A DNA stretch of 64,000 nucleotides from Hypholoma sublateritium FD-334 SS-4 (taxonomy: Eukaryota > Basidiomycota > Agaricomycetes > Agaricales > Strophariaceae), in the NCBI GenBank assembly GCA_000827495.1, contig KN817519.1, forward strand, positions 760,462-824,461, given 5' to 3'. The notes below the pieces were generated by a model, which ran no database searches, was not told where the DNA came from, and worked only from the letters and a program-made list of their open reading frames with translations. Shown here in pieces: positions 559-63,318 of this stretch. Position 1 is the first letter of the stretch; each line of letters starts with the position of its first letter. The translations under genes and the position numbers were made by a program.

Positions 559-2298
559 TCATGCGCGTACATTGATTCCATTTTCCTTGAGCGCCGATTT
601 CACCTCCTCGATGCCGACCTCCTCTCTGTGGAAGATACCCGCAGCCAGAGCGGCCTCGACGTCCGTCTGCGCGAACACGTCCACGAAATGCGCCGCCGTC
701 CCCGCGCCGCTGCTCGCAACGACGGGGACCTTCACGCTGCGCTTGATGAGGCGCACGAGGTCGAGGTCGAACCCGCGGCCCGTTCCGTCGCGGTCGATGC
801 TGTTCACGAGGATCTCACCGGCGCCGAGCATCTCCACGCCTTGCGCGAGCTCGACGACGGATAGCTCACGCGCCTCGCGCCCACCGGACACCGTGCACTG
901 GTACCACCACGCGCGCCCGCGTTCGCGCTCGTCCGCTGCGTCGGGCGCGCCGTGCACGAGCTCCGCGGTGTACGGCCCCGTGTATGTAGCGGCATCGTCG
1001 ACGTACACGCGGCGCGGGTCGATCGAGACGACGACGGCCTGGTTCCCGTACGCGCTCGCGATCTGCTCGACCGCGCTCGTGCCGTCACGCACGTACCCCG
1101 CCGCACGCAGGCGCTCGACGGCGAAGACCGCGTCGGAGCCGATGCTGACCTTGTCCGCGCCCGCGCGGAAGTACGCCGCGGCGACTTCGACCGCGGGGCG
1201 CGGCGTGCCGTCCGGGTCGACGCTGTCCTTGATCCCGCCGCCGATCGTGAGCGGGACGAAGATAGTCTCGGCGGCCGCGCGCACGACGGCGAGCATCGGC
1301 TGGTCCTGCAGCGGCGAGTGGCGGAAGGACGTGATGTTGAGCAGGCAGAGCTCGTCCGCGCCCTCCGCGAAGTAGCGCGCGGCGAGCGCGACGGGCTTGC
1401 CGAGGTTGCGCACCGCGCCCGCGGCGGCGACCGCGGGGCCGGCCTTCTCGCGCACGTCGTACTGGTCGCCCTTGGTCACGACGAGGTCGCCCTGGTCGTT
1501 CGCGCGCACGTCCATGCACGCGACGATGCGCTTCGTGAGCCGGTGCGCCGGTGCGGGGAAGCGTGCGACGAGCGGCGCGGGCGGCGCGTGGGTGTGCGCG
1601 GACTCGGGCTGGCGCAGCCAGTCGTCGAGCAGCTTGAGGCCCGCCTTGCCCGACTTTTCCGGGTGGAACTGCGTCGCGAACACGTTTCCCTGGCGCGCAG
1701 ACGACATGAACAGCTCGTGGCCGTACTGCGTTATTGAATGGGCCCAGCGCATCGCCGCGGGGTGGGCCTCAGGGTTATATTTGGCGCAGTAGGAGTGGAC
1801 GAAGTAATAATAAGCGGCAGCGTCGAGCTCTTCGCTGGCGTCTGCTGCGGGGGATGCGCTGGCGATTGGGTCCGCGACGTTCCATCCCATATGCGGGACT
1901 GCTTTGTCGTCGTCGGTGAAACGTTCGATGGGACACGGAATTATGCCCAGGCCCTTGGAGGGCCCTTCGGCCGACGACTGGAAGAGAACCTGCATGCCGA
2001 TGCAGATACCAAAGTAGGGCTTTCCAGACAGGATGTACTGGCGCAGGGGCTCGAATAGACCGCGGGCATGGAGGCCCCCAATCGCGCTCTCGAATGCGCC
2101 GACGCCAGGGAAGACGAGGGTCTGCGGATTCAGTCAATATCAGGATAGATTGCAGCATATTAATAGGGCGTTACTGACGGTGGCCTTGTGGAAATCAGCG
2201 GCATCTTTTATCCACTCGAACTCGTGTCCTAAGGATTTGAGCGAATTGGCGAGCGACTGGACGTTGCCTGCGCCGTAATCAAGTAGGAAGAGGCCCAT
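559..2298 (-). CDS. HIS7: Imidazole glycerol phosphate synthase (HisH-HisF fusion)
   Basis: Bifunctional histidine-biosynthesis enzyme: an N-terminal class I glutamine amidotransferase supplies ammonia to a C-terminal HisF barrel, which makes imidazole glycerol phosphate and AICAR. Exon 1 is 2298-2179 and exon 2 is 2121-559; a 57 bp phase-0 intron (2122-2178) separates them, giving 560 residues, close to the yeast enzyme. The amidotransferase nucleophile is Cys80 in GICIGMQ, and the partner His lies in ATQFHPEKSG. The barrel begins at RIVACMDVR (catalytic Asp) and has the second Asp in VNSIDRDGTGRG; the phosphate-binding TIGGGI and VVASSGAG segments are intact. The start was chosen because MGLFLLDYGAGNVQS is the canonical family N-terminus. 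It is divergent from the SerA-like gene with 132 bp between start codons. Confidence 0.97.
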
Positions 2299-21750: not shown

Positions 21751-23348
21751 CCGCACTACGAGCGCTACGCCGCCCGAGCGCACATCAACCTGGGACGAGA
21801 TGTGAGTACCCCTTGCACGGCGGTGCCGCTTCCCCTGGACCGCCGCAGCGCACCGCGCCTCGCGTGCCAACGCCTCAGCGGGGCGCGTCGAGACGTCCGG
21901 AGCACTCGTAAGTAAAATCTGCGACGGCTGTAGGCGCGCCCGCCGCTCCGTATTCGAGTTATACTACCAGCAGCCGCTGGTTGACCGCCCGGATGTGCAT
22001 ACCGACCCCCACGGCGGCGCCGCTTTCCCTGGACCGCCGCAGCACACCTCCGCTCGCGCAAACGCTAGCCAGTGCGCGCGGCGCTGGTATGTCGTATTTG
22101 CAAATCGGCGATGGATACTTGTGCAGGGCTCTGCTTTTACTGGCAGCCGCTGTGCTTTTCGCCGCACACTGTGTTGATGCGCTGGGTCTGGGGCAACGGG
22201 TGTTCCGCCGGGTGTACCGAGAGCCCACGTGCATGGCGGTGCGCTTTCCCCGCCGCAGCGCAGCACACCGCGGTGCGCGCGCGCAAACGCCTCAGCGGGG
22301 CTCCCGACGCTGGTACGTCCGCAGCACTCGTATAGTTTCGTGTGCGATGTCCGACGCTCCTTATTCGAGTTGTATTATTGGCGGTCGCTGTGCTTTGCGC
22401 CGCACAGTGCGCGTGCGCTGCATGTCGATGCGCTGGGTCTGGGGCGGCCGATGCTCACTCACAATCCAGGTTCATGCGGTGCCCCCGGCTGCCAGCGCAC
22501 GGCTGCGCCGCTCGCGCGCAAACGCCCCGGCGGGGCGCTATGGTCCGCTCGCAGCACTCGCCAAATTTCGTCTGCGATGGCTGCAGGCGTCCCTCGACGC
22601 TCCTCATTCAAGTTGTATTATTCGCAGCCGCGCAGTGCGCGAGCGCTACCGACTTCCTGGCTCTAGGCGGCGGATGCGCACTCAGAATCCAGATTCATGC
22701 AGTGCCCGTGGCGTCGTCCGGGGCGGGGCGGGGAGCTACTTACGCGTGCGGCGCTCTTCAGTCGCCGCCTCGCCTGGTGCGCCCGAGCGCGCGCGGAGAC
22801 CCAGCTGGTATTATATGGTATGTACGAGGGTCTGGACGTCCCTCGACGCTACTTATATATTGACCAGATCGTTCAGGGCCCGGGGACAGGCGCTTTTCCA
22901 GTCGCAGGGCGAGTCACATGGGGCAGAAATATCTCAGCCGTGGCGCCCAAGAGCGCGCGGAGCTGGTGAGTATGTGTTTCGGGCGTCACTTGACGCTCCT
23001 TATTCAAGTTATATTATTGGCGCCCGCCGTGCTCAGGCCGCACAATGTGCGCACTCCGTCAACGCGCTGACTGAAGTGGTGAATGATTATTCAATAATGA
23101 TCACGCAGATCCATGATAATGCGATTAGAATTCGTGTGCGTATTCGTGTGCGTATCTTCGACCAAATGGGGGCCCGCGCACCGCTCGGGGGCGCAGCTGG
23201 CATGGTACGTATGCATGTATGTATGTATTGTACAGACTAGCTAAGTAGGACAATAGAAAGCAAAATTATAGAATGCAGGACGCATCTATATCTATTCACT
23301 AACAGTATCGTCCGTGCAGTGCGTGTCGGCCGGTGCCGGTATATGCCA
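21750..23348. repeat. GC-rich degenerate tandem repeat array, copy 1
   Basis: Non-coding array built from units with a block like CTCCTTATTCAAGTT followed by TATTATTGGC and a GC-rich CGCACAATGTGCG stretch. Blocks start near 21,946, 22,357, 22,599 and 22,995, with a partial one near 22,125, a spacing of roughly 240 bp except the last. Long open frames across it are an effect of GC content: they change register with each unit and show no conserved protein. The right end (about 23,060-23,348) is repeated at about 25,970-26,260. Confidence 0.75.
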
Positions 23349-23385: not shown

Positions 23386-23881
23386 ACTCTTGTCTATCGT
23401 TCATCCGCGACGACCAAAAACAAAGCTAACAAAAGGGTTGGGCTGAGCCTGAACGTTAGTCCAGGCAGGAACACGGAGCGAGGTGCCGCTGGGTGGGCGG
23501 GACCAATGCTCAGAGACTTTCACAACATTAGCTTTGAATCAGAGTGTCATGGATGGATAACACAGTGCTAATACACTATTGGTGTGGAGTCTGGACATGG
23601 TTTTGATACTACAATATTTGAACAACATTTTGTACACATATGAACTACTTTCAATGCCCCCAGGTTTGGGCAAGGTCTGGTAGAATTGGAATGAAGAAAT
23701 TGTATACTATAAACAGGGAGGGAGGGATGTGTCCAAAAATTTCCAGGGAACCGACTAACGTCCTTCGGAGGGATGAGCTTTCCTGCATCGATTCTGCAGG
23801 ACGACGCGGTTGTTAGGAAAAAAGGGTGCCGTGGGAAGAGGTTGCATTTTACGCACTAACCGCTCGCGTGGACGCTGGTGG
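23386..23881. other. Unique AT-richer spacer
   Basis: About 500 bp with no resemblance to the flanking arrays and no recognised gene. It separates the detached repeat unit from the stop codon of the first precursor gene and is a plausible 3' untranslated and polyadenylation region, or inserted DNA. Confidence 0.45.
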
Positions 23882-24220
23882 CTAAGCCTCCTCAGCGGGT
23901 ATTTGACGCTTGTCGAACGGCACAATCGTTCCCTGGGGAGAGTTGACCGGCTCCTCAGCAGGAACTTGACGCTTGTCGAACGGGATAATCCCCCCATGGG
24001 GCGACATGACTGGCCCCTCCGCAGGAATTTGGCGCTTGTCGAACGGGATAATCCCCCCATGGGGCGACATGACCGGCCCCTCCGCAGGAATTTGGCGCCT
24101 GTCGAACGGGATAATCCCCCCATGGGGCGAATTGACCGGCCCCTCAGCGGGTATTTGGCGCTTGTCGAACGGTTCTATTGTCCCCTGGGGAGACGTGACC
24201 GCCCCCTCGGCGGGGATCTG
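23882..24220 (-). repeat. 63 bp coding tandem repeats of precursor A
   Basis: Five complete units, 24220-24158, 24157-24095, 24094-24032, 24031-23969 and 23968-23906, then a 24 bp stub with the stop codon. Units 3 and 4 are almost the same base for base; units 1 and 5 are closer to the precursor B type. Confidence 0.93.
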
Positions 24221-24587
24221 CCGCGCGTACACGGGGATGGGGGCGAGTGGACCGGAGGGGGCGGCGGCGCGCTTTTAACATAAAAAAATAAAGAAGTCAG
24301 TTGCTGTGCGATGCGAATTAAATGTGCAGGGGTGCGGTGCGGACCACCCGAGCCGCGCGCAGGGGTGGGTGCGCAGGCAGGCAGGGGTGCGCAGGCAGGC
24401 AGGGCTGCTAGTGCTAGAAGCCGCTGCCCGGCGTAGATGCGGAGCACGACACACGGCGCACGGGACGAGATGCAATAAGATAGCACGGAACACAGCGCAC
24501 CTGCAGAGGGCGGGGGATCACCGCGCCGAGCGCGTGCGACGCGAGCGCAAGCGCCAGCAGGGCGGTGAGTGCGGTGCGGGCGAACAT
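23882..24587 (-). CDS. Secreted Kex2-type repeat-peptide precursor A
   Basis: Predicted secreted propeptide of 158 residues. Exon 1 (24587-24501, 29 codons) encodes the signal peptide MFARTALTALLALALASHAL plus a few residues; a 229 bp phase-0 intron (24500-24272) follows; exon 2 is 24271-23882. After a short pro-region (RAAAPSGPLAPIPVYAR) come five 21-residue units, each ending in KR or RR, and a stub QIPAEEA before the stop. The units vary: one of type EGAVTSPQGTIEPFD, three of type EGPV(N/M)SPHGGIIPFD and one of type EEPVNSPQGTIVPFD, all starting with QIP or QVP. Dibasic sites between near-identical units are the pattern of Kex2-processed peptides such as fungal repellents and alpha-factor-like precursors. 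Units 3 and 4 are almost identical in DNA, a recent duplication. Release as free peptides is inference; a cell-wall structural role is possible. Confidence 0.85.
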
Positions 24588-24690
24588 CGCTGCGTTGAGT
24601 TGAGTTGCGTGGGTGTGCGGTGGGGTGGGGTGGGTGAGATGGGATAGTGGGCGATGAAAGTGGTGAAAAGCGAGAGCGGGCGTAGGCTGG

Positions 24691-24697
24691 TATAAAG
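24691..24697. promoter_or_regulatory. Conserved core-promoter block of precursor A
   Basis: On the minus strand, about 105-110 bp upstream of the start codon, TTTATACCAGCCTACGCC follows CAGTCGAATTT. The same block, CAGTCGAATTTCCTTTATAC then CCTACGCCC, lies at the matching distance from precursor B (near 29,148-29,170). Conservation of an AT-rich TATA-like core and its flanks between paralogues whose outer flanks differ suggests a shared promoter. Confidence 0.5.
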
Positions 24698-24719
24698 GGC
24701 GAAAATTCGACTGGCGAAC

Positions 24720-26260
24720 GGCGTATGGGCATACCCACCCCCATACGGCGACCGTCGCAGCGCAACGCTGCTCGCGCGCAAACGCCCCAGCGGGGCGCCC
24801 GCGCTGGTCCGTCCGCAGCATTTGTATAGTTTCGTGCGCGATGCCCGACGCTCCTTATTCAAGTTTTATTATTGGCAGTCGCTATGCTTTAATTGCGCCG
24901 CACAATGTGCGTGTGCGCTGCCGACGCGCTGGGTCTGGGGCGGCGGATGCCCACTCACAATCCAGGTTCAAGCGGTGCGCCGGCCGCCAGCGGCGGTGCG
25001 CTTTCCGCGTCGCAGCGCAAGCGCCCCGGCGGGGCGCGCTGGTCCGCCCGCAGCACTCGCAAAAACTTGTCTGCAGTGCCGGGCGTCGCCCGGCGCTCCG
25101 TATTCGCGTCGTTGACAGCCGCGCGGTGCGCGTGCGCTGCCGACGCGCTGGCTCTGGGCTCAGAATCCAGATTCACGCGGTGCCCATGGCGTCGTCCGGG
25201 GACGGCGCGCGCGGAGCTCGTATGTATGTATGTGGTATGTACGAAGGTCTGGGCGTCCCTCGACGCTACTTATATCGTTGGCCAGATCGTTCAGGGCCCG
25301 GGGACAGGTGCATTCCCACCTAGTCAATCGCAGGCGGGGTCGCATGGGGCAGAAATGCCTCAGCCGGGGCGCCCAGGGGCGCGCGGAGCTGGTGTGTATG
25401 TGGTGTTTACGAAGGTGGTCTGCGATGGCCATGCCGGGCGTCACTTGACGCTCTTTATTCAAGTTATATTATCGGCGCCCGCTGTGCTTAGGCCGCACAA
25501 TGCGCTGACTGCAGTGGCTACTCGTTACTCAGACCCACGTCAATGCGATTAATTGCGCACAGAATTCGAGTTCGCATTCGTGTTCGCGTGCGCATCTCAA
25601 TTTCAAGTTAAGACGCCCAACAGACGCCGCCCGGGGCCCGGGGACAGGTGCTCTTCTACTCGCCCGCCAGTCGCAGGCCGGGTCGCATGGGCGGAAATGC
25701 CTCAGCCGGGGCGCCCAGGGGCGCGCGGATCTGGTAAGGTTATATTATTGGCGCCCGCTTGTGCGTCGGGCCGCACAATGTACGTGCGCTATGCCAATGC
25801 GCAGCTGACTGAAGTGGCGAATGATTATTCGATAATGATCACAATGCGATTCATTACGCGCAGAATTCGTACTCGCATTCGCGTTCGTGTGGGTATATCA
25901 ATCTCAAGTAATTGTTTGGAGGCGCTGTGCTCAGGCCGCACAATGTGCGTGCTCCGTCAATGCGCTGACTTGAAGTAGCGAATGATTATCCAACGATCAC
26001 CCAGATTCATGACAATGCGATTAGATTTCGTGTGCGTATCCGTGTGCGTATCTACGGAATGGAAGCCCGCGCACCGCCCGGACGCGCAACTGGCATGGTA
26101 CGTACGTACGTATGTATTGTACAGACTACTAGCTAAGTAGAACAATAGAAAGCAAAATTAGAGAATGCAGGACGCATCTATATCTATCTACTAACAGTAC
26201 AATCTATCGTCCGTGCAGTGCGTGTCGGTCGGTGCCGGTATGCTATATGCCAGGTTATGC
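24720..26260. repeat. GC-rich degenerate tandem repeat array, copy 2
   Basis: Same repeat family as 21,750-23,348, lying upstream of precursor A. Blocks of the CTCCTTATTCAAGTT / TATTATTGGC type start near 24,853, 25,095 (degenerate), 25,448 and 25,736. A second motif, GACTGAAGTGGCGAATGATTATTC with CAATGCGATT and CGCATTCGTGT, recurs near 25,510, 25,810 and 25,970. The terminal 280 bp is about nine-tenths identical by eye to the end of copy 1, including GCATGGTACGTA and GCAGGACGCATCTATATCTAT. No coding capacity is supported. Confidence 0.75.
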
Positions 26261-26693
26261 GGTATGCAGGGGAATTTGAGAGAAAAATGGGTTGTATGCG
26301 CAATGCGATGCTGAAAAAGAGAAAAAAAATAACCCGAGATTTGGAAAATGCGAGAGACCAGTATGCGATATGCCGAATAATGCCGTGGAGAATAAACCGT
26401 GCTTGAGAGAGACGAGAGAGAAAGGAAACGGAGCGTGCGCAGCCGCAGCGCGTGTGCGTGTGGGCGTGCGGTGCGTGCGTACCGCGAGGCGCAGCGCGCT
26501 GGTGCTGAGCTTGAGCTGCGCGTCCGAACAGGCGGCACCGCAAGGTACATAGCGGGCAGCGCAGCGTGCGCCAAGTGAGCTGTCCCCAGCGCGTGGGGGG
26601 CGCTCTTCCTGTGGGACGGGCCGGATATCGTGTCGAGGTGCCAGTGGCGTGTTGCGAAAGCGGGCCGAAGCGAATCGGCGCGGGCGAGCGAGC

Positions 26694-26708
26694 GTGTGTG
26701 TGTGTGTG
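26694..26708. repeat. GT dinucleotide microsatellite
   Basis: An uninterrupted GT run of about seven units, in the region 3' of the Pro/His-rich exon. Too short to have a clear role; useful as a length marker. Confidence 0.7.
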
Positions 26709-26844
26709 GAGACGGGCCTGATTTTCGGGGGTGGGGCGGGCTCGCATCAAGCGAGGGAGGGGCGGGCGGTGCTCAGCACGGCGGGAGGTACTGCGGGATG
26801 GATCAGGCGGTGCGCGGGCGCAGCAGCAGCGGCGGCGGACTCAC

Positions 26845-27420
26845 CATGACGTGCGCGGGCGCGGGCGGCGGCTGCACGACGAAGTAGCCCCCGGGGGCGG
26901 GGTACCCGTACGGCGCGGCGTACGGCGGCGACACGGGCGGCGCCGCGGCGGTGTAGTACCCCTGCGAGTGGTGCCGCCGCGCGTGCCCGTGCCCGTGGCC
27001 ATGGCTATGATGCCCATGCGAGTGCGAATGCGAGTGCGAGTGCGAGCGGTGCGCAGGGAGGAGGTACGGCTGGTGCGCGCCGGGCGGGAGGAGCGGCGCG
27101 TACGCGGGGTGCGGGGCGTACCCTGCCCCGCCCGGGAGCGGCATCGGGCCAGGGCCGGGGCCGTACTCGTACGTGTCCGCGGACGGCGAGCGTCGCGGCG
27201 GGGGTGGTGCGTACTGCACGGCGTACGGCTGGAGGGGCAGCGCCGACGGCCGTGGGGCGGGGGCGCGCTTGACGGTGGGTGCGCCGGGGGGCGGGGGCGT
27301 GTTGAGGGCGGGCTCGAACTCGCGGCGGTGCGCCTCGGTGGTGTCGACCCAGTTCGCGATGCGCGTCTGCGTGGCGAGGTACCGCTCGTACGCCTCGGGC
27401 GAGTAGTCGTATTCCGTCAT
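26845..27420 (-). CDS. Pro/His/Tyr-rich low-complexity protein (5' exon; 3' end unresolved)
   Basis: Exon 1 encodes 192 residues from MTEYDYSPEAYERYLATQTR, then ANWVDTTEAHRREFEPAL, a Pro-rich stretch, an SHSHSHSHGHHSHGHGHGHA run and a Pro/Ala/Tyr-rich part ending PAPAHVM at a GTGAGT donor. The ordered N-terminus with a low-complexity remainder resembles uncharacterised Agaricomycete proteins; I do not recognise a function. His runs can bind metal, but that is inference. The 3' exon probably lies within 26,200-26,700, where several AG acceptors could continue the frame; none is clearly right. A TATAAAA on the minus strand (27506-27500) sits 80 bp upstream of the start. It lies between the two repeat-peptide genes. 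Confidence 0.6.
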
Positions 27421-27989
27421 GTCGCTGAGTGATGCGGGGGAGGAGAGGAGAGGAGAAGGCGCAGGCTGCGTGCAGAGTCTAGACACCGGATATTCGCTGT
27501 TTTATATGCACGCCTCGGCTGGTGTTGCGTAGTGACCGAGCAGACAAGGCAGTCCCAGCCTGAATCTGATGACGACGGGGCGGTGCTGGCCGGATCACGC
27601 TTCTACCCGACCATGAGGCCGCCTCCCCACCCGATGGCGTGCCGGCCCCTCCCGCGCTGTTAATATCATCGCTGCATTCCACTTCATCTCATCACCGGAC
27701 GTAATCATGTTCCATCCAATCCGTGTCAATTGACAAAAGAGTGCCACAACTATCAGCTATCTAAACGACGATCGACGCCTCGCAAAATGTACACTACACT
27801 ACCCTACAGTCCACGGAGCATGCAACTAACACACACACGCTGCACGCACCCGCCACCGCCACCGCAATTTTCAATGAAAATGAACTAATCATACACCTGC
27901 ACCATAGCTGCGCGCGATAACCCTGCCTGCCTGCCGAGTTGACCCCTGCGTGGGCTCGCGCAGCGCCGATGCCGCACCCGAGTCCCAGT
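27421..27989. other. Promoter of the Pro/His-rich gene and 3' region of precursor B
   Basis: Contains the minus-strand TATAAAA at 27,500-27,506 about 80 bp before the Pro/His-rich start codon. The stretch from about 27,700 to 27,989 lies downstream of the precursor B stop and has no recognised coding content. Confidence 0.5.
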
Positions 27990-28685
27990 CTAGTTGTACG
28001 GAACAATCGTCCCCTGCGGCGCCTTCACCGCTTCCTCCACCGGGATCTGGCGCCTCGCGAACGGCACGATCGTCCCCTGTGGGGCCTTGACCGCCTCCTC
28101 GGCGGGGATCTGGCGCCTGGTCGCGGTGTACGGCACGATCGTGCCCTTCGGTGACATCACGGCCTCCTCCGCGGGTATTTGACGTCTGGTGAAGGGGATG
28201 ATGGTCCCTTGGGGAGACTTGACCGCCTCCTCAGCAGGAATTTGACGCTTGTCGAACGGCACAATCGTCCCCTGGGGAGACTTAACCGCCTCCTCAGCAG
28301 GAATTTGACGCTTGTCGAACGGCACGATGGTCCCTTGGGGAGACTTGACCGCCTCCTCCGCAGGTATTTGACGCCTGTCAAACGGCACGATGGTCCCTTG
28401 GGGAGACTTGACCGCCTCCTCAGCCGGAATCTGGCGCTTGTCGAACGGCACGATGGTCCCTTGGGGGGACTTGACCGCCTCCTCAGCGGGTATTTGACGC
28501 TTGTCGAACGGCACGATGGTCCCTTGGGGAGACTTGACTGCCTCCTCAGCCGGAATCTGGCGCCTGTCGAACGGTACAATCGTCCCCTGGGGGGACTTGA
28601 CCGCCTCCTCCGCCGGAATCTGGCGCCTGTCGAACGGCACGATCGTCCCCTGGGGAGACTTGACCGCCTCCTCCGCGGGGATCTG
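27990..28685 (-). repeat. 63 bp coding tandem repeats of precursor B
   Basis: Eleven head-to-tail units: 28685-28623, then every 63 bp to 28182, a 69 bp unit 28181-28113, 28112-28050, and the terminal 28049-27990 with the stop. Synonymous changes alternate between CAG-ATC-CCC and CAA-ATT-CCT forms, showing block exchange among units. Confidence 0.95.
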
Positions 28686-29046
28686 GCGCGCGTACACGGG
28701 GATGGTGGCGAGTGGCCCGGAGGGGGCGGCGGCGCGCACGGCGCGCTGAGAACAATAACGTCAGTTATGTTACGCTGCGGCGGGGATGCAAATTAAATGT
28801 GCGGGGCATGCATGCACGCACGCACGCGGAGGTGCGGTGCGGATGACCCGCGCAGGGCTGGGTGCGCAGGCAGGGCTGCTAGCACTAGTAGCCGCTGCCC
28901 CGCGTAGATGCGGAGCACGGCGCACGGGATGTAATAAGATAGGACGGAGCATAGCGCACCTGCAGAGGGAAGGGCATCACCGCGCCGAGCGCGTGCGACG
29001 CGAGCGCGAGCGCCAGCAGGGCGGTGAGTGCGGTGCGGGCGAACAT
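27990..29046 (-). CDS. Secreted Kex2-type repeat-peptide precursor B
   Basis: Predicted secreted propeptide of 280 residues, paralogue of precursor A. Exon 1 (29046-28960) encodes the same 29-codon signal region, differing only near its end (VMPFPLQ versus VIPRPLQ). A 214 bp phase-0 intron (28959-28746) lies at the identical codon, and exon 2 is 28745-27990. After the pro-region (about 20 residues ending PVYAR) come eleven units. Units 1-7 carry the same 19-residue core QIPAEEAVKSPQGTIVPFD, followed by KR or RR. Units 8-11 drift: IIPFTRR, MSPKGTIVPYTATRR, KAPQGTIVPFARR and a last one ending VPYN at the stop with no dibasic site. Each 63 bp unit is nearly identical in DNA. Kex2 cleavage would free peptides with N-terminal Gln, which could cyclise to pyroglutamate. 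No cysteine is present in the cores, so the peptides would be unbridged. The function is unknown. Confidence 0.9.
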
Positions 29047-39095: not shown

Positions 39096-39466
39096 GCACC
39101 CAAGGAAACGAACAAGTTGTGGGCGCACGACACGTTAGGAGCTGCCCGCCATGGAACGGCGCGCTTCGTCACGGTCACGTTTCACCTTCAAGGCGCAAAT
39201 ATTGTCACATTCAACATTCTTTGCAATTCACTCTCTTTTGTTTTACAGACTAATTGGTCTTTGAAGGACCTCATACATGCAAGCGCGCTTATCCCAACAC
39301 CACAGTTTGCCGCAGTTTCATGTACAAAGGTGCATATCATGCTTCCGGCGCTTGATTTCTCATTTGATTCCGATATATGGCATGTTCATAAGCTTGCATA
39401 AGTAGCATGGGCAAATGGAATAGGGAACATGATAATGCAGTATATGAAATACAAAAATGTAACCGC
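39096..39466. other. Promoter of the Rap1-like gene, 3' region of RPS16
   Basis: 370 bp with no recognised coding content between the Rap1-like start codon and the RPS16 stop. Confidence 0.45.
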
Positions 39467-40024
39467 TTAACGGTAACTGTACAAGGGTAAGGCGTAGTGA
39501 TGAGCATTCGTCGGTGTGCGACGACTTTAAACAAACGCACCTCTTCTGTCTGCGGGCACGGGCACCATGTCCTCCGAACTTCTTGGGCTCCATCCGTCTC
39601 GGGTCGGCGATCAATAGGGTTCGGTCGTAGGCCACCAGCTTCTTCTTCAACTCCATGGCACTGTAGGCATCGATGTACTTGGCGTAGTACGCAACGAGGG
39701 CCTTGGCGATGGCCTGGCGGATGGCGTACACCTGCGAGGTGTGTCCTCCTCCCTTCACGCGAACACGGATGTCGAGGGGGGCGAATGACTCTTCGCCTGC
39801 AACCAGGACGGGCTCGTACACCTTCAGGCGGAGGATCTCAGGCTGGACGAGGTTGATGGGGGAACCGTTGATGCGGATGAGTCCGCGTCCTTCACGTGCG
39901 TGCGCGACGGCGGTCGCGGTCTACTCCAAGCACTACACTGAATCGATATTCCTCTATCTTCAAAAAGACTGCGGCACACCTTCTTTTTGCCGAATGTCTG
40001 GACGGCCTTGACGGATGATGCCAT
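39467..40024 (-). CDS. RPS16: 40S ribosomal protein S16 (uS9)
   Basis: Small-subunit protein whose C-terminal tail reaches the P-site tRNA. Exons 40024-39980 ([15 protein letters not shown]), 39920-39541 and 39476-39467 give 144 residues. The universally conserved parts are seen: [47 protein letters not shown] split across the middle, and [11 protein letters not shown] at the end. The last exon has only 10 nt and supplies the tail SYR with the stop; without it the conserved C-terminus is lost. Shares an intergenic region of 291 bp with the divergent uL4m gene. Confidence 0.97.
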
Positions 40025-40315: not shown

Positions 40316-41294
40316 ATGCTCAGAAATGCTGCCGTCAATGTAAATACCGTTCGTTATCTATGTCGTCCGTTTTTAACTGCTTTTCAGGCATCGCGGTTTT
40401 CCCGGTCCAAAAAATCACGCATTTCCAAAGGCATAACAGTACCTCTTGTAAATGTGAAGCCACGTCAACCCGTGTCTACGGCTGGTACGTCGCCTGCCGC
40501 GGCCCTGTCACCCCAAGCTCACAGTTATCTTACCAGCGAAAGCCATTCTTGAACCCGTATTTGTGTCCCTCACACCCTGCTTGAAACGTGGCCGATGGGA
40601 CCCTCGTCCCGGAGACAATGTCGCCGTGCTGGAGCCTACCGTATTCAAGCACCCTATTAGACGCGACATCCTCCATCTCTGTGTCACGCACCATCTTGAC
40701 TCGCTGCGCCAGGGCTCCGCGAATACGAAGACGCGTGGCGAAGTGCGCGGGTCTGGCATCAAAATTCGCCGGCAGAAGGGATCGGGCAAAGCGCGTCTCG
40801 GCGACGGCCAAAGTCCCATGCTCCGAGGCGGAGGGATAGCGTTCGGGCCTAAACCGCGTGACTTCAGCACCAAGCTGCCGCGGAAGGTAGTGGAGATGGG
40901 CATGCGTATCGCACTGAGCTCGAAGCTCAAGGAGCAGCGCCTGGGTGTCATGACGCGCCTCTACTGGCCCTGTGCGAAGACGAAGCCACTTGCGATGAAG
41001 ATCGACCAGCTTGGCCTTCGAAAGACGTTGTTTGTCACTGGCTCGGCGACCGTGCACGAAGGGCTCCGGCGTGCTATACAGAACATCCCCCTTGTGAATG
41101 TCACCACCGCCGACCAACTTGACGTGTACGAGGTCATGAAGTGGGACAGGGTAATCTTGGACTTGAAGGGTGTGGAGTACTTCGAGAAATTGCTCAAGAA
41201 GCGGAATGTCCCTACGGTCCCCGTTCATCTCCTTCCCAGCGAGGCCCCATCTGCCATCTCGAAACAAATTTCTGAAGAACTTCCCTCAGTCTAG
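40316..41294 (+). CDS. MRPL4: Mitochondrial large-subunit ribosomal protein uL4m
   Basis: Nuclear gene for a mitoribosome protein lining the peptide tunnel. The core matches L4: LEPTVFKHPIRRDILH, GEVRGSGIKIRRQKGSGKARLGD, SPMLRGGGIAFGPKPRDFS and LPRKVVEMGMRIALSSKL. The exon from 40316 ends at 40484; a 52 bp intron leads to 40537-41294. The N-terminal 60 residues are basic and Ser-rich, as for a mitochondrial presequence. The stretch of 48 bp after VN, beginning GTAAAT and ending TTTTCAG, has splice-site form yet is a multiple of three without stops, so two presequence lengths are possible. Confidence 0.93.
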
Positions 41295-47726: not shown

Positions 47727-49644
47727 TCAGATGAATTCCTTGGGACGCTTGGCGGGGTCTCCACCGGCCTCATCGTAAACAAGGCCAGCAACACGGAACG
47801 CCAATTCTACCGGGAACGTGCATAAGCGAAGTAGCCAGCATGAAATCCAGCAGCCGGATTCACTCACCGTCTGCCTGCGCTCTCAACACAGCTTCGGCGT
47901 AGACTCGCACGACGTCTTCTGTTCCACTCGGCCTAACGAAAGACCTGCCGCCCTCGTATCTCCGGACAAGCTCGTGGATCTTCTCCTGTAGCCCTGGCGG
48001 GTTCACTAGACGCCGCTCTGCGTCTTCTGTCTTGAACGCATTCCTGTCGCCAACGACAACCTTCACGAGACGGTTTGGCAGATCGGCGTACAGCGAGTTC
48101 CATTCAACCCCTGAGTACGATTTGTGTGCCAGAACGACCTCGACCAGAAGCATGTCGGACAAAGCATCGCCGACAGTCTGGTTAATCAATTGCGTCAAGT
48201 TGATCAAATGATTCAACGCAGTTGACTGTGCTGGGGTCGAGGGCTCGTGTTTGGTGAGAATTTCCTGGGTAGCTGGCGAGAATAGCACAGTCCCATGACC
48301 GTTGGCTTCAAAGTAAACTCCAATGCTGTAATGCTCGGCGGCGTGGTGGAGATGCTTCACGCCAGTGGAAACACATTTCACAGGCAAACGCTAACTTGAC
48401 GTGTAAGTACTTCTGGCATCATCATAAAACAAATCTCACCTCTTCAAGGTATTTTGTAGACGCGCCGTTGGCATACGCTGTCTGCACCACGCCCACTTTG
48501 ATTTCCGATTCCAATCCTGCGAGTTTGACTTGTTCTACTATGAAGGCGGCAACCAACGCTGCGATTTTATCACCGTCAAGCATGTGGAATTGGCCACGCT
48601 CGTCGAGATAGTAATACATCAGGCGATCGGCATCGCCGTCTAGACTGCACGCTCTCTGGCCAGGCTTCATGACATCCACGAGATTGGGGGGCAATCTCTG
48701 CATGGTCTTGACGTAATCAGCCCCGCACGAGTCGTTAAGCTTTCCACGAGAGGTTGTGTCGGTGTTTTCTAGAACCAATGGAATGCTCGTCCCTAGATAC
48801 GCTTGGAGGTTTTTAGCGGCTATCGCGCCGACTCCGTTGGCACAGTCGATAACAACAGTATCCGGTGTAGCTTTCCCGGCCTGTAGACGTTTCAAATGGG
48901 AGAACAAAGGTCCAAAGGTCAAAACGTACGATCAGTTTCTTGAACGACGCGCTGAGCTTGGTATAATAACCGTCTTCCGAATCGTCGCCGTAGCTCTCGT
49001 TAGTCCCCTTGGTGTTGATTGCCTTCACGAGGTAGTGCAAGATCGGCGTCGTTGTAACGCCAGCATCGCGCGCTTCAACGCCTAGCGCTTTGAACCCGTC
49101 TTCCAAGGCAGAAATGAGCGCTGGACCAGAAGGGCGGGTGTCTCGGGCGTAAACCACCCGGGCGGGCTTCGAGAGATCGATCCTGGCGCTCTGGACAAGC
49201 GCGCTCACCGCCTCGATGAACGCATCGGTACTCGGGGCGTTCGCGAGAGCCGTCGCGTGTACCTCCCAAGATGCCTCGAGCATCTCACCGCGTGGGTCGA
49301 CGAGCTTCACACCATTGTCCTATGTAGATAAACGCGTCAATATAAGTGCGGATCGCGCGGGCGTCGGGCTACCTGTTCGGGGTTGTGCGATGCAGTGACC
49401 ATTACACCAATGGTGCGCCCATCGAGGCGCTTGCTACGTAGCCCAGCGAGAATTCCGACGCGAAAGAGGACAGAATCGAGGGTACTGCCCCTGTAACATC
49501 GCGACTACTTAGCGGAAGCAATCTGTGGGCAGGCGGTACGTACAATGTCCTAAAGCCCGCAGTACCGTACTGGAAGTAGAGGTGAGATGGCTTCGGATGG
49601 GCATCTGCGAGGACTTGGATGGCCCTGACGGGGAGTTCTGGCAT
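47727..49644 (-). CDS. PCM1: Phosphoacetylglucosamine mutase
   Basis: Converts GlcNAc-6-phosphate to GlcNAc-1-phosphate in UDP-GlcNAc synthesis, feeding chitin, N-glycans and GPI anchors. Key motifs: substrate entry [11 protein letters not shown], active-site serine loop [23 protein letters not shown], metal loop [14 protein letters not shown], and the phosphate-binding [17 protein letters not shown] near the C-terminus. About six exons; the start at [12 protein letters not shown] and the stop after KRPKEFI give close to the family length. Divergent from alpha-SNAP with 130 bp between start codons. Confidence 0.96.
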
Positions 49645-60597: not shown

Positions 60598-63318
60598 ATG
60601 TCCGACGCAGACTCGCATTCTACCCATCGGTCTTCTCTTCTTCTGCGGGAATCTGAGCATGGGAGCTCGACCCGTACCAGTCCTAGCCCGAGCCCCTCTC
60701 GATCGGCACGGCGCTCTCTGACGGCCCCAGATACCTACAACACTTCCCGAGCGCCCAAATTTAAGCGGATCGTCGTCTTATGTGATGGGTAAGCATATCC
60801 TTTGGTCGTAGCTGAACATCCACGATCGCATCCCCCAGCTGCATGCATGACTGACTCACCTCCTCAATTCAGGACCTGGGAGAACGGCGTCGACGACCCG
60901 GCTCTGCAGAAAGCGACGTACACCAATGTTATGGTATGTCGCTCGGCCTCGGCTGTTGCTGGCGGAGGTCACATTACTTACTGCGCCTGACACCTGTCAA
61001 TAGCGCTTAGCAAGGGCTCTCCATCATGAAGACCATAGACCAAAGGGAGACGCACCGGTCACGCAAGTCGTGTATTATCAATCCGGGGTGGGCTCTGCAG
61101 ATAACCTCTACTCCAAATACGTCGAGGGTGCGTCCATGAGACTACGTTATAGCGTCAGCCTCGCTAAATTTCCCTTTAGGGGCGACTGGTGACAGTCTTC
61201 GTCAGTGTCTATTTTGAGCGCTTTATGTGCAGTGCAGGAACACAGAACTTAGTACTGAGTATCTTTTTCGCAGCTCATAAGGTGGAAGAAGCATATGCAT
61301 TTATCTCCCAGTGAGTTGTTCGTGAAGGTGTTGATATGGACCATGGCGCTAATATGTTTGTCGGGTCTAGAAACTTCAATCCTGGAGACGAGGTGAGCGC
61401 CAATTCATTTGCGAAATAAGATAATATAATAGACCTCTGACTATTATCTCAGATCTATCTATTTGGTTTTTCGCGGGTAAGGATCAAAGCGACAGTATTT
61501 GTATGCAATCCTGAAGCAGTCATTTTTGTACAATAATAGGGAGCTTATACGGCCCGTATGATCGCCACGCTCATAGTAAGTTTCACTTCCCATGGTCTGA
61601 CTGAATATAACAGGAACTGATGTTATGTGTATGCAGGGAGAAATCGGCATTCTGACGCGTTCAGATATGGATAAATTCGGTTATATATTTGATAATTTCC
61701 AGAAATTTGGAATATGCGACAATAAAAAGGGTGATTACTGACCTTTGCCTCTGTATTACATATATGAATATTCTGATTATTGTAGAGAAGGATGCCCTAG
61801 AGGCCATTTTAGCGCCTTACCGTGATCCACATTCCGAGGGGCACAAGCGGGCAGCCTTGTGGAAAGACAAATTTACCATTAAGTGTGTTTTCGAACACAC
61901 TATTCGAGTGTTCCACAGGCTAACGCGCTTCGCACTCTTTAGATTTATAGGTGTATGGGATACCGTTGGCTCACTCGGGCTTCCGCGCGAAATTGATCCT
62001 ATACGCGAGAAAAGGCGCCCACTATTTGGTCTCCCCGACTGCATGTTGGGGGAACACATCGAAGCTGCGTACCAAGCTCTCGCAATAAATGAGATGCGGG
62101 AAGACTTTGTGAGTTCAGCCAATACACGTGAGGCTCGATTGAACGGTATCGCTAATGCTGATATACTTTTCACAAGGTTTGCGCCAAGTTTTACCAAACA
62201 GCGGCAGGGAAAAATAAAGGCCAGATTCTCAAACAGGTGAGGCAATGTATAATCATGGTCACCGGCGGCGCTGATATATTGTATGCAACTCTCTAGACTT
62301 GGTTTTCGGGTGAGTGGCATTGACATATATAAAATATTGCCGTAGGCTGATCTCCTTCTGCCAGGCTGTCACGCCGATGTTGGTTACATTTAACAATGCC
62401 GATATTTAGAAATGACGGCTAACAACTCGTTCATCAGATAGGGGGTGGATATCTCGAGCACGATCTTTCTGACCTTTCCCTGATCTGGATGGTGGTGAGC
62501 ATCTAAGCTCTATTAGAGTTCAATTGTGATCACTAATCAATGTACCTTGCAGGCAAATGTACAAAACTATCTTTTTATCGACGAAGACTATCTGCGTCAG
62601 CTGATACGGCCAGTCGCTCCATGGGGGGAGCAGAAACCACACAAGTAAGTCCCCTTCGCCATTTGAGTTGCACGACGCTATCAAACCTGCTGTCAGCTCC
62701 AGAACAGGCGTCTTTGAGCTATCGCTGGAGGCTCAGCGGACACTACCTTCATCTCCAAACGAACAAACAAATGAAACGGTACACAGTTCTGTGGTCCGGC
62801 GAATGCAGGGCATGTCCAAGTTGCCAAAAGCGCTAGAAGGTCTGAAGCGCAGCGTTGAATCGCATCCCTCTCTTGTTGAAGAACTCTTGGAACTCGAGAA
62901 AAGAATCTACGACCAGTGGCCACACCGGCTTAGCCTGGCCGCCAGGCAAGCCTATGAACTCAAACTGCAACAATCTGGCGTAGAGCGGCCCGCGCTGAAG
63001 AGAATGGGATCGGTATTCAACTCGCTCCGGCGTTTGTCCCAGGGTTCAAGCGGCTTTTTAACAAGATGGATCTGGATCTGGAGAACCACAACCACCACCA
63101 CCAGTGCAGGTACAACAATAAGGACGACTGCGAGCACAAGCGTCACTGTCCAACCCACGAACACTGTAGGTAGCAATGAGTCAAACTCCAGTTCGAGCTC
63201 GCACGCTGCGAAAAAACAATTCACTATTACTCAAACAAAGGTCACAGGGCAAAATAAGGAGGGATTGGACACCATCGCCAACAGCACCACAATAGTGGTT
63301 CAATCTCCCACCTCATAA
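60598..63318 (+). CDS. DUF2235 alpha/beta-hydrolase (Tle1-like)
   Basis: Fungal member of the DUF2235 family, distantly related to bacterial Tle1 phospholipases. The first exon has a Ser/Arg-rich N-terminus, then RAPKFKRIVVLCDGTWENG, the family start. Later exons give NFNPGDEIYLFGFSRGAYTARM with the nucleophile elbow GFSRG, and FIGVWDTVGSLGLPREID with the catalytic-Asp strand. GCHADVGGGYLEHDLSDLSLIWM, containing the last catalytic His, is spread over two or three short exons. The C-terminal extension has a Trp-rich patch (RWIWIWRTTTTTTSAG) and a Thr/Ser-rich tail. Roughly 15 exons. Catalytic residues seem complete; the substrate is unknown. Confidence 0.85.

What the first reader, a model, noticed from the sequence alone, without database searches (positions are those of the whole stretch)
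23882..29046. Two paralogous secreted precursors built of Kex2-separated 19-residue repeats
Both genes have a signal peptide, an intron at the same codon, a pro-region and an array of units, each starting QIP and ending KR or RR. Precursor B has eleven units with core QIPAEEAVKSPQGTIVPFD; precursor A has five plus a stub. Seen directly: repeats and dibasic sites. Established: Kex2 cuts after KR/RR in secretory precursors, and repeat precursors of this layout give alpha-factor, Ustilago repellents and dikaritin peptides. Inference: release of many copies of a Cys-free peptide with N-terminal Gln. The core is not one I can name. Fungal signalling, adhesion or surface roles are all open.
Basis: partly seen in the sequence, partly recalled or inferred. 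Interest (0 to 1): 0.92.

Follow-up and report, generated by a model that had tools for sequence, protein, structure and literature searches.

The report
Twin mushroom repeat-peptide precursor genes
Two neighbouring mushroom genes each appear to encode a secreted protein that is cut into many copies of a short peptide; the same peptide family has already been found and measured in another mushroom, but what it does is not known.

Summary
Two minus-strand genes, A (24587-23882) and B (29046-27990), each have an 87-nt signal-peptide exon, a phase-0 intron at the same codon and a repeat exon: A with five units plus a broken sixth, B with eleven. [quoted passage not shown] The peptide family is not new: Coprinopsis cinerea KEP 497993 yields pyro-QIPAELPTKSINGNIEPY(K), detected by mass spectrometry, with at least 13 reported homologues and no phenotype on deletion (Vogt et al. 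2022). B's core matches that peptide at 10 of 18 positions; my searches returned 30 relatives. It is probably Umemura's type #7, reported from 49 genera. The genome has three P-domain loci, one checked as kexin, and glutaminyl cyclase exons, so pGlu-capped 18-19-mers are the expected product. Added here: strong purifying selection on B's core; A as a diverging, insertion-truncated tandem duplicate; a single-Arg first site; and a linked MTEYDYSPEAYERY gene, in the same order as in one Amanita gene model. Function stays open; I favour an extracellular signal or biotic-interaction peptide. New member of a known kind.

The parts
28960..29046 (-). Precursor B exon 1: MFARTALTALLALALASHALGAVMPFPLQ (signal peptide plus start of pro-region)
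   Evidence: hydrophobic core TALTALLALALA, mean hydropathy 2.2 over 12 residues
28746..28959 (-). Precursor B intron, 214 nt, phase 0, GTGCGC...CTGAC...CAG
27990..28745 (-). Precursor B exon 2: pro-region RAVRAAAPSGPLATIPVYAR, then 11 units (28685-27993), stop 27992-27990
24501..24587 (-). Precursor A exon 1, 83 of 87 nt identical to B exon 1
24272..24500 (-). Precursor A intron, 229 nt, phase 0, same codon as B
23882..24271 (-). Precursor A exon 2: pro-region RAAAPSGPLAPIPVYAR, five units (24220-23906), stub QIPAEEA and stop
23386..23885 (-). about 500-bp insert (inferred) that breaks A's sixth unit after GAGGAGGC and supplies A's stop codon; short pieces match contigs C77 and C68
23349..23385 (-). 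orphan partial unit (VKSPQGTIVPF) on the far side of the insert, 35 of 37 nt identical to B units
26803..27420 (-). linked gene MTEYDYSPEAYERY..., between A and B, downstream of B on the same strand; the Amanita thiersii model P0002 has a KEP array followed by this same kind of protein
22259..23342 (+). direct-repeat copy R1 flanking A (main pieces 77-85% identical to R2)
24756..26241 (+). direct-repeat copy R2 between A and the MTEYDY gene

Best explanation
A and B are tandem paralogous KEX2-processed repeat proteins of the QIPAE...G.I.P[YF] family (Coprinopsis KEP 497993 family). Most likely route: signal peptidase removes the leader; kexin cuts after KR/RR between units and after the single Arg (YAR|QIP) before unit 1; Kex1-type trimming removes basic residues; glutaminyl cyclase closes the N-terminal Gln to pyroglutamate; linear 18-19-residue peptides, mainly pGlu-IPAEEAVKSPQGTIVPF(D) from B, are secreted. 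A yields variant peptides (HGGIIPF type). Shown here: gene anatomy, family membership, selection on B's core, and kexin and glutaminyl cyclase sequences in the genome. Inferred from the published Coprinopsis mass spectrometry: cleavage, capping and secretion. Function is inferred only: an extracellular signal, either between hyphae during development or towards other organisms, recognised by something specific rather than a bulk coat or an antibacterial.
For: Anatomy. Ten of 18 positions identical to the Coprinopsis peptide; 0 of 200000 shuffles score as high. Thirty relatives by protein search at E <= 0.001, several sharing the N-terminus MF[AS]R and a pro-region with TIPVY. Published detection of pyro-QIPAELPTKSINGNIEPY(K), lost in the deletion strain. 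Among B1-B8, synonymous difference 0.43 against nonsynonymous 0.009 per site; 0 of 2000 neutral simulations have so low a nonsynonymous share. In 63 distinct fragments cut from relatives at dibasic sites without asking for a motif, E5 and G13 are present in 63, P3 in 62, and position 18 is Y or F in 63. One kexin gene (E 2.5e-70) among three P-domain loci; glutaminyl cyclase exons. Units preceded by a single Arg also occur in relatives: 12 of 65 Q-starting external units found by pattern. Thirteen of 30 relatives end in Y or F, which fits a mature C-terminus there.
Against: No transcript, peptide or protein data for this organism. The Coprinopsis deletion had no phenotype and the synthetic KEP peptides tested had no antibacterial activity, so any signalling role is unproven. 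The paper reports the peptides still present in the kex mutants, including the kex2a/c double mutant (the QIPAEL peptides could be assayed in the kex2a strain only, the others not fruiting), and suggests redundancy. Relatives were found with these motifs, so their conservation is partly selected for. Repeat units may also stay similar through gene conversion, though that does not explain synonymous differences. A may be decaying: it is truncated by an insert, and its nearest unit pairs have about as many nonsynonymous as synonymous differences (A1-B1 4 syn/3 nonsyn, A5-B7 2/3).
Confidence: 0.88

Rival explanations
1. Surface-coat or amyloid peptide precursor working like Ustilago Rep1: Kex2 releases repeats that assemble at the hyphal or cap surface.
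For: Same precursor layout; Rep1 peptides form amyloid-like fibrils according to the introduction of PMC9769878. The short TIV/IIPF stretch is hydrophobic.
Against: One product of the Coprinopsis precursor accumulates in culture supernatant. The core is charged (-2.2 at pH 7) with GRAVY -0.23. Column-specific conservation (E5, G13, Y/F18 in 63 of 63 distinct fragments, P3 in 62) looks more like recognition than bulk assembly, though it does not exclude assembly.
Confidence: 0.12
2. Unprocessed repeat wall protein; the dibasic pairs are incidental.
For: No processing data in this organism.
Against: The homologous precursor is cut in Coprinopsis and in Pichia; 15 of the 16 full-length units of A and B are followed by KR or RR, all but B's C-terminal one.
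Confidence: 0.03
3. Precursor of a cyclic dikaritin RiPP made with UstY oxidases.
For: Dikaritin precursors share the layout, and the genome has UstYa-family hits (39 matched stretches).
Against: None of those 39 is on contig C2; Umemura lists 0 of 64 type-#7 KEPs with a neighbouring DUF3328 gene; B1-B8 have no Tyr in the core; the detected peptides of the relative are linear.
Confidence: 0.02
4. A is a pseudogene and only B is active.
For: Insert in the sixth unit, elevated nonsynonymous change; M and N at position 9 of A units are not seen in 63 distinct fragments of relatives.
Against: Open frame, conserved exon 1 and splice sites; A's seven changed columns are among the more variable in the family (912 of 100000 random column sets as variable).
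Confidence: 0.3

Closest known systems
Coprinopsis cinerea KEP 497993 (Vogt et al. 2022, PMC9769878; abstract, sections 3 and 10, parts 1-2 of 3 of section 4, and passages read)
   Same: Secreted repeat precursor; units start QIPAE and contain KS..G.I.P[YF]; 10 of 18 residues identical to B's core; N-terminal Gln; at least 13 agaricomycete homologues reported.
   Different: This genome has two tandem paralogues; the cores are QGTIVPFD and HGGIIPFD rather than NGNIEPYKV; the first site is a single Arg.
Umemura 2020 KEP type #7 (G-1/P-2), PMC7329392 (section 6 and passages read)
   Same: Of the Pfam names hit by my 32 family proteins, DUF2188, TAFH, DUF1648 and TruB_C are among the 27 listed for this type; one weak hit (RHS_repeat) falls in the list of type G-5/P-1. 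Its 49 genera include Coprinopsis, Pleurotus, Hypsizygus and Panaeolus, named by Vogt et al. as carrying homologues.
   Different: Identity is inferred, because the type's sequences are in a supplement that I could not open. Its genus list lacks Lentinula and Amanita, where my searches found members. Reported 1.03 KEPs per strain, two genes here.
Ascomycete alpha-pheromone precursors
   Same: Signal peptide and Kex2-separated peptide repeats (by the account in PMC9769878).
   Different: No XA/XP STE13 dipeptide after the dibasic site. Sequences not compared here.
Ustilago Rep1 repellent precursor
   Same: A KEP whose linear peptides are released by KEX2 (by the account in PMC9769878).
   Different: Sequences not compared here.

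Membership tests
KEX2-processed repeat protein (KEP) | N-terminal secretion signal | tested here: met
   Hydrophobic run TALTALLALALA at residues 5-16, more than twice the hydropathy of any 12-residue stretch from residue 31 on. No dedicated predictor was available.
KEX2-processed repeat protein (KEP) | Repeats separated by KR/RR/KK | tested here: met
   Five full units in A and eleven in B; KR or RR follows 15 of 16, all but B11; unit 1 of each gene is preceded by AR.
KEX2-processed repeat protein (KEP) | Actual kexin cleavage | not testable with these tools
   Kexin gene present (three P-domain loci); cleavage shown only for the Coprinopsis relative.
Coprinopsis KEP 497993 peptide family | Core similar to QIPAELPTKSINGNIEPY | tested here: met
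   10 of 18 identical, 0 of 200000 shuffles as high; 30 relatives by protein search.
Coprinopsis KEP 497993 peptide family | N-terminal pyroglutamate | not testable with these tools
   N-terminal Gln in all 16 full units; glutaminyl cyclase exons in the genome.
Umemura type #7 | Clusters with that type by BLASTP | tested here: inconclusive
Dikaritin RiPP cluster | Adjacent UstYa/DUF3328 genes | tested here: not met
   39 UstYa stretches in the genome, none on C2.
Alpha-pheromone-like precursor | XA/XP STE13 motif after the dibasic site | tested here: not met
   Every unit begins QIP or QVP directly.
Alpha-pheromone-like precursor | STE2-type receptor in the genome | tested here: inconclusive
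   No PF02116 hit, but no control genome rang either.

The most novel reading that the evidence does not exclude
The pGlu-IPAE..VKS..G.I.P[YF] peptide is a conserved mushroom peptide hormone with a dedicated receptor. The tandem copy A is evolving a second ligand, and the linked MTEYDYSPEAYERY gene, which follows the KEP in both this genome and an Amanita thiersii gene model, acts in the same pathway.
Probability: 0.1. Interest if true: 0.75.

Novelty: new member of a known kind. Interest (0 to 1): 0.3.

Why it matters
If type #7 is this family, it is the KEP type that Umemura found in the most genera, with peptides measured in Coprinopsis and no known function. Natural paralogues with defined residue changes, strong selection on B's core and a candidate linked gene give concrete handles for finding the binding partner. 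As a discovery of a kind it is not new.

Tried and rejected
Alpha-type pheromone: not favoured, because there is no STE13 dipeptide. Dikaritin: not favoured, because no UstYa hit lies on the contig. Unspliced reading of the locus: rejected because of stop codons before the repeats. Pfam TAFH hit on B (E 6.9e-10 for the whole protein, no stretch significant on its own): treated as a repeat artefact. Plant-type glutaminyl cyclase family PF05096: no hit in the genome, with 3 of 14 controls ringing; an enzyme of the animal type was found through PF04389, while another M28 locus tested resembled aminopeptidases. STE2 receptor search gave no usable answer. R1/R2 as a dispersed transposon: not supported, since that search found copies only at this locus. 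Literature searches for later work on this KEP: by their listings, no functional study beyond the 2022 paper; the other papers listed in 19, 45 and 57 that bear on KEPs were not opened except PMC6339444 and PMC7329392, and the 15 of 6515 listed were unrelated. A profile search of solved structures with the family found nothing. Own error found on checking: the unit pattern used itself fixes P3, E5 and G13 and a terminal Y/F (one search also Q1), so invariance there was built in; I recounted without a motif and use that. No structure prediction was run. The organism was not identified.
Full report
WHAT IS THERE. On the minus strand the window holds two paralogous genes. B: exon 1 29046-28960, intron 28959-28746, exon 2 28745-27990, 280 residues. 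A: exon 1 24587-24501, intron 24500-24272, exon 2 24271-23882, 158 residues. Both introns sit after codon 29, start GTGCGC, and end at the first AG after a CTGAC motif. The exon/intron reading is backed by comparison: exon 1 of A and B aligns with 95.4% identity and no gaps; the introns align at 89.3% of 178 columns but with 87 gap columns; the start of exon 2 (pro-region plus four codons of unit 1) differs by 9 gap columns, three codons. There is no ATG in the repeat frame between the preceding stop and the acceptor, and reading on from the ATG without splicing meets a stop before the repeats. Lentinula gene models P0006 and P0096-P0098 run on from ...MPLQ at the matching place.

UNITS. B has eleven units. 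B1-B7 are exactly QIPAEEAVKSPQGTIVPFD followed by KR or RR; B8 to B11 vary, and B11 ends ...PYN at the C-terminus. A has five full units (QIPAEGAVTSPQGTIEPFD, QIPAEGPV[NM]SPHGGIIPFD three times, QVPAEEPVNSPQGTIVPFD) and the stub QIPAEEA. Both pro-regions end IPVYAR, so unit 1 is preceded by a single Arg. In relatives, 65 external units beginning with Q were found by a pattern that does not look at the preceding residues; 50 follow KR or RR, 12 follow a single Arg and 3 neither. Vogt et al. [quoted passage not shown] Cleavage at YAR|QIP is therefore plausible, not shown. Twelve of 32 family proteins end exactly at the end of a pattern unit, and 13 of 30 relatives end in Y or F, which fits a mature C-terminus at that residue; some of the 30 may be cut short by contig ends or misannotated. 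In Coprinopsis the detected forms end PY and PYK.

FAMILY. Full-text search for QIPAE found Vogt et al. 2022. Coprinopsis KEP 497993 gives pyro-QVPVDEPA in culture supernatant and mycelium and pyro-QIPAELPTKSINGNIEPY(K) primarily in young caps; these were no longer detectable in its deletion strain; at least 13 homologues were found in other species; kep deletion strains grew and fruited normally; the synthetic peptides tested did not inhibit bacteria. B's core shares 10 of 18 residues with that peptide, and none of 200000 shuffles scores as well. Protein searches gave 7 and then 30 relatives (the 7 included) at E <= 0.001, named ones from Amanita, Hymenopellis, Termitomyces, Lentinula, Desarmillaria and Agrocybe, plus one from an ascomycete (Naviculisporaceae, P0116). 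In both searches only about 8000 candidates sharing most words were scored. Umemura's type #7 is reported from 49 genera, the most of any KEP type. Of the 25 Pfam names shown for my 32 proteins (37 in all), DUF2188, TAFH, DUF1648 and TruB_C are among the 27 that Umemura lists for that type, 0.03 expected by a crude count; one other name, RHS_repeat, is in the list of another type. That makes the identity likely but not proven; Lentinula and Amanita are missing from the type's genus list.

CONSERVATION AND SELECTION. Cutting the 30 relatives after every KR/RR, with no motif asked for, gave 77 fragments of 17-21 residues from 23 of 30 proteins, 63 distinct: E5 63 of 63, G13 63 of 63, P3 62, Y or F at 18 in 63, I2 55, Q1 48. 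(The relatives were themselves found by similarity to these units.) Among B1-B8 the summed differences are 161 synonymous and 10 nonsynonymous over 28 pairs (0.43 and 0.009 per site); only B8 differs in protein. A simple neutral star simulation gave a mean nonsynonymous share of 0.74 and 0 of 2000 runs as low as 0.058. Pairs are not independent and the simulation has no base-composition or transition bias. A is different: its units differ from each other by 0.39 synonymous and 0.14 nonsynonymous per site, and the nearest pairs are A1-B1 (4 synonymous, 3 nonsynonymous) and A5-B7 (2, 3). A's seven changed columns are among the more variable in the family (912 of 100000 random sets as variable), and no A unit changes P3, E5, G13 or F18; but M and N at position 9 are not among the residues seen there in relatives. 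A is under looser or altered constraint.

HOW THE PAIR AROSE. The region 22259-23342 (R1) recurs in pieces at 24756-26241 (R2), main pieces 77-85% and a further one 68% identical, with no copy elsewhere in the genome found by that search. A's homology to B breaks at 23886 in mid-unit, and a 37-nt piece that matches the following part of a unit lies at 23385-23349, next to R1. I infer a tandem duplication of a block [R - MTEYDY gene - KEP], loss of the MTEYDY copy and part of the array on the A side, and an insertion of about 500 bp in A's sixth unit. Parts of the insert match three places on two other contigs.

LINKED GENE. Downstream of B, same strand, lies an ORF beginning MTEYDYSPEAYERYLATQTRIANWVDTTEAHRREF (27420-26803), with 87 relatives at E <= 0.001; those with an organism name are, by my recall of the genera, agaricomycetes. 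The Amanita thiersii protein P0002 is a KEP array followed by this kind of protein (34 of 50 residues identical), probably two neighbouring genes in one model. Of the 94 proteins checked, only P0002 holds both. So the order KEP then MTEYDY is seen in two genomes.

MACHINERY. Three P-domain loci on two contigs, one checked and closest to solved kexin; Vogt et al. report three kex2 genes in Coprinopsis. Glutaminyl cyclase exons on C7, best matched by solved glutaminyl-peptide cyclotransferases. Thirty-nine UstYa stretches, none on the KEP contig. Kex1 was not searched for.

MECHANISM AND STANDING. The secretory processing route is well supported by homology; the function is not known. I hold an extracellular signalling or biotic-interaction role as most likely (about 0.6 by judgement) because of column-specific conservation and the published absence of an axenic phenotype and of antibacterial activity.

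PAPERS SEEN. PMC9769878: abstract, sections 3 and 10, section 4 parts 1-2 of 3, passages. PMC7329392: section 6 and passages. PMC6339444: passages only. Others: search listings only. Statements on Rep1 and on alpha-pheromones come from the introduction of PMC9769878.

Noticed in passing
window 26803-27420 (-): Conserved gene with N-terminus MTEYDYSPEAYERY and a His/Pro-rich tail, no Pfam family at E 0.1; follows the KEP here and in the Amanita thiersii model P0002.
   Followed up: partly
window 23386-23885: About 500-bp insert splitting A's sixth unit; pieces of 47-68 bp match contigs C77 and C68 at 82-87%.
   Followed up: partly
window 22259-23342 and 24756-26241: Locus-specific direct repeats flanking gene A, signs of a tandem duplication.
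   Followed up: partly
P0116 (Naviculisporaceae sp., Ascomycota): A QIPAE-family KEP in an ascomycete on a 349-kb contig: possible transfer between phyla or an older origin.
   Followed up: no
P0112-P0115: Relatives in which the QIPAE units are preceded by a single Arg (AR or PR) instead of a dibasic pair, suggesting monobasic processing in one branch of the family.
   Followed up: partly
   Followed up: no
window 61656-62237 (+): ORF with a match to the T6SS Tle1-like phospholipase catalytic domain (PF09994, E 2e-10).
   Followed up: no
window 562-2133 (-), 40458-41291 (+), 39363-39920 (-), 47863-48390 (-): Ordinary housekeeping neighbours: histidine biosynthesis protein, ribosomal proteins L4 and S9/S16, phosphoacetylglucosamine mutase.
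   Followed up: no
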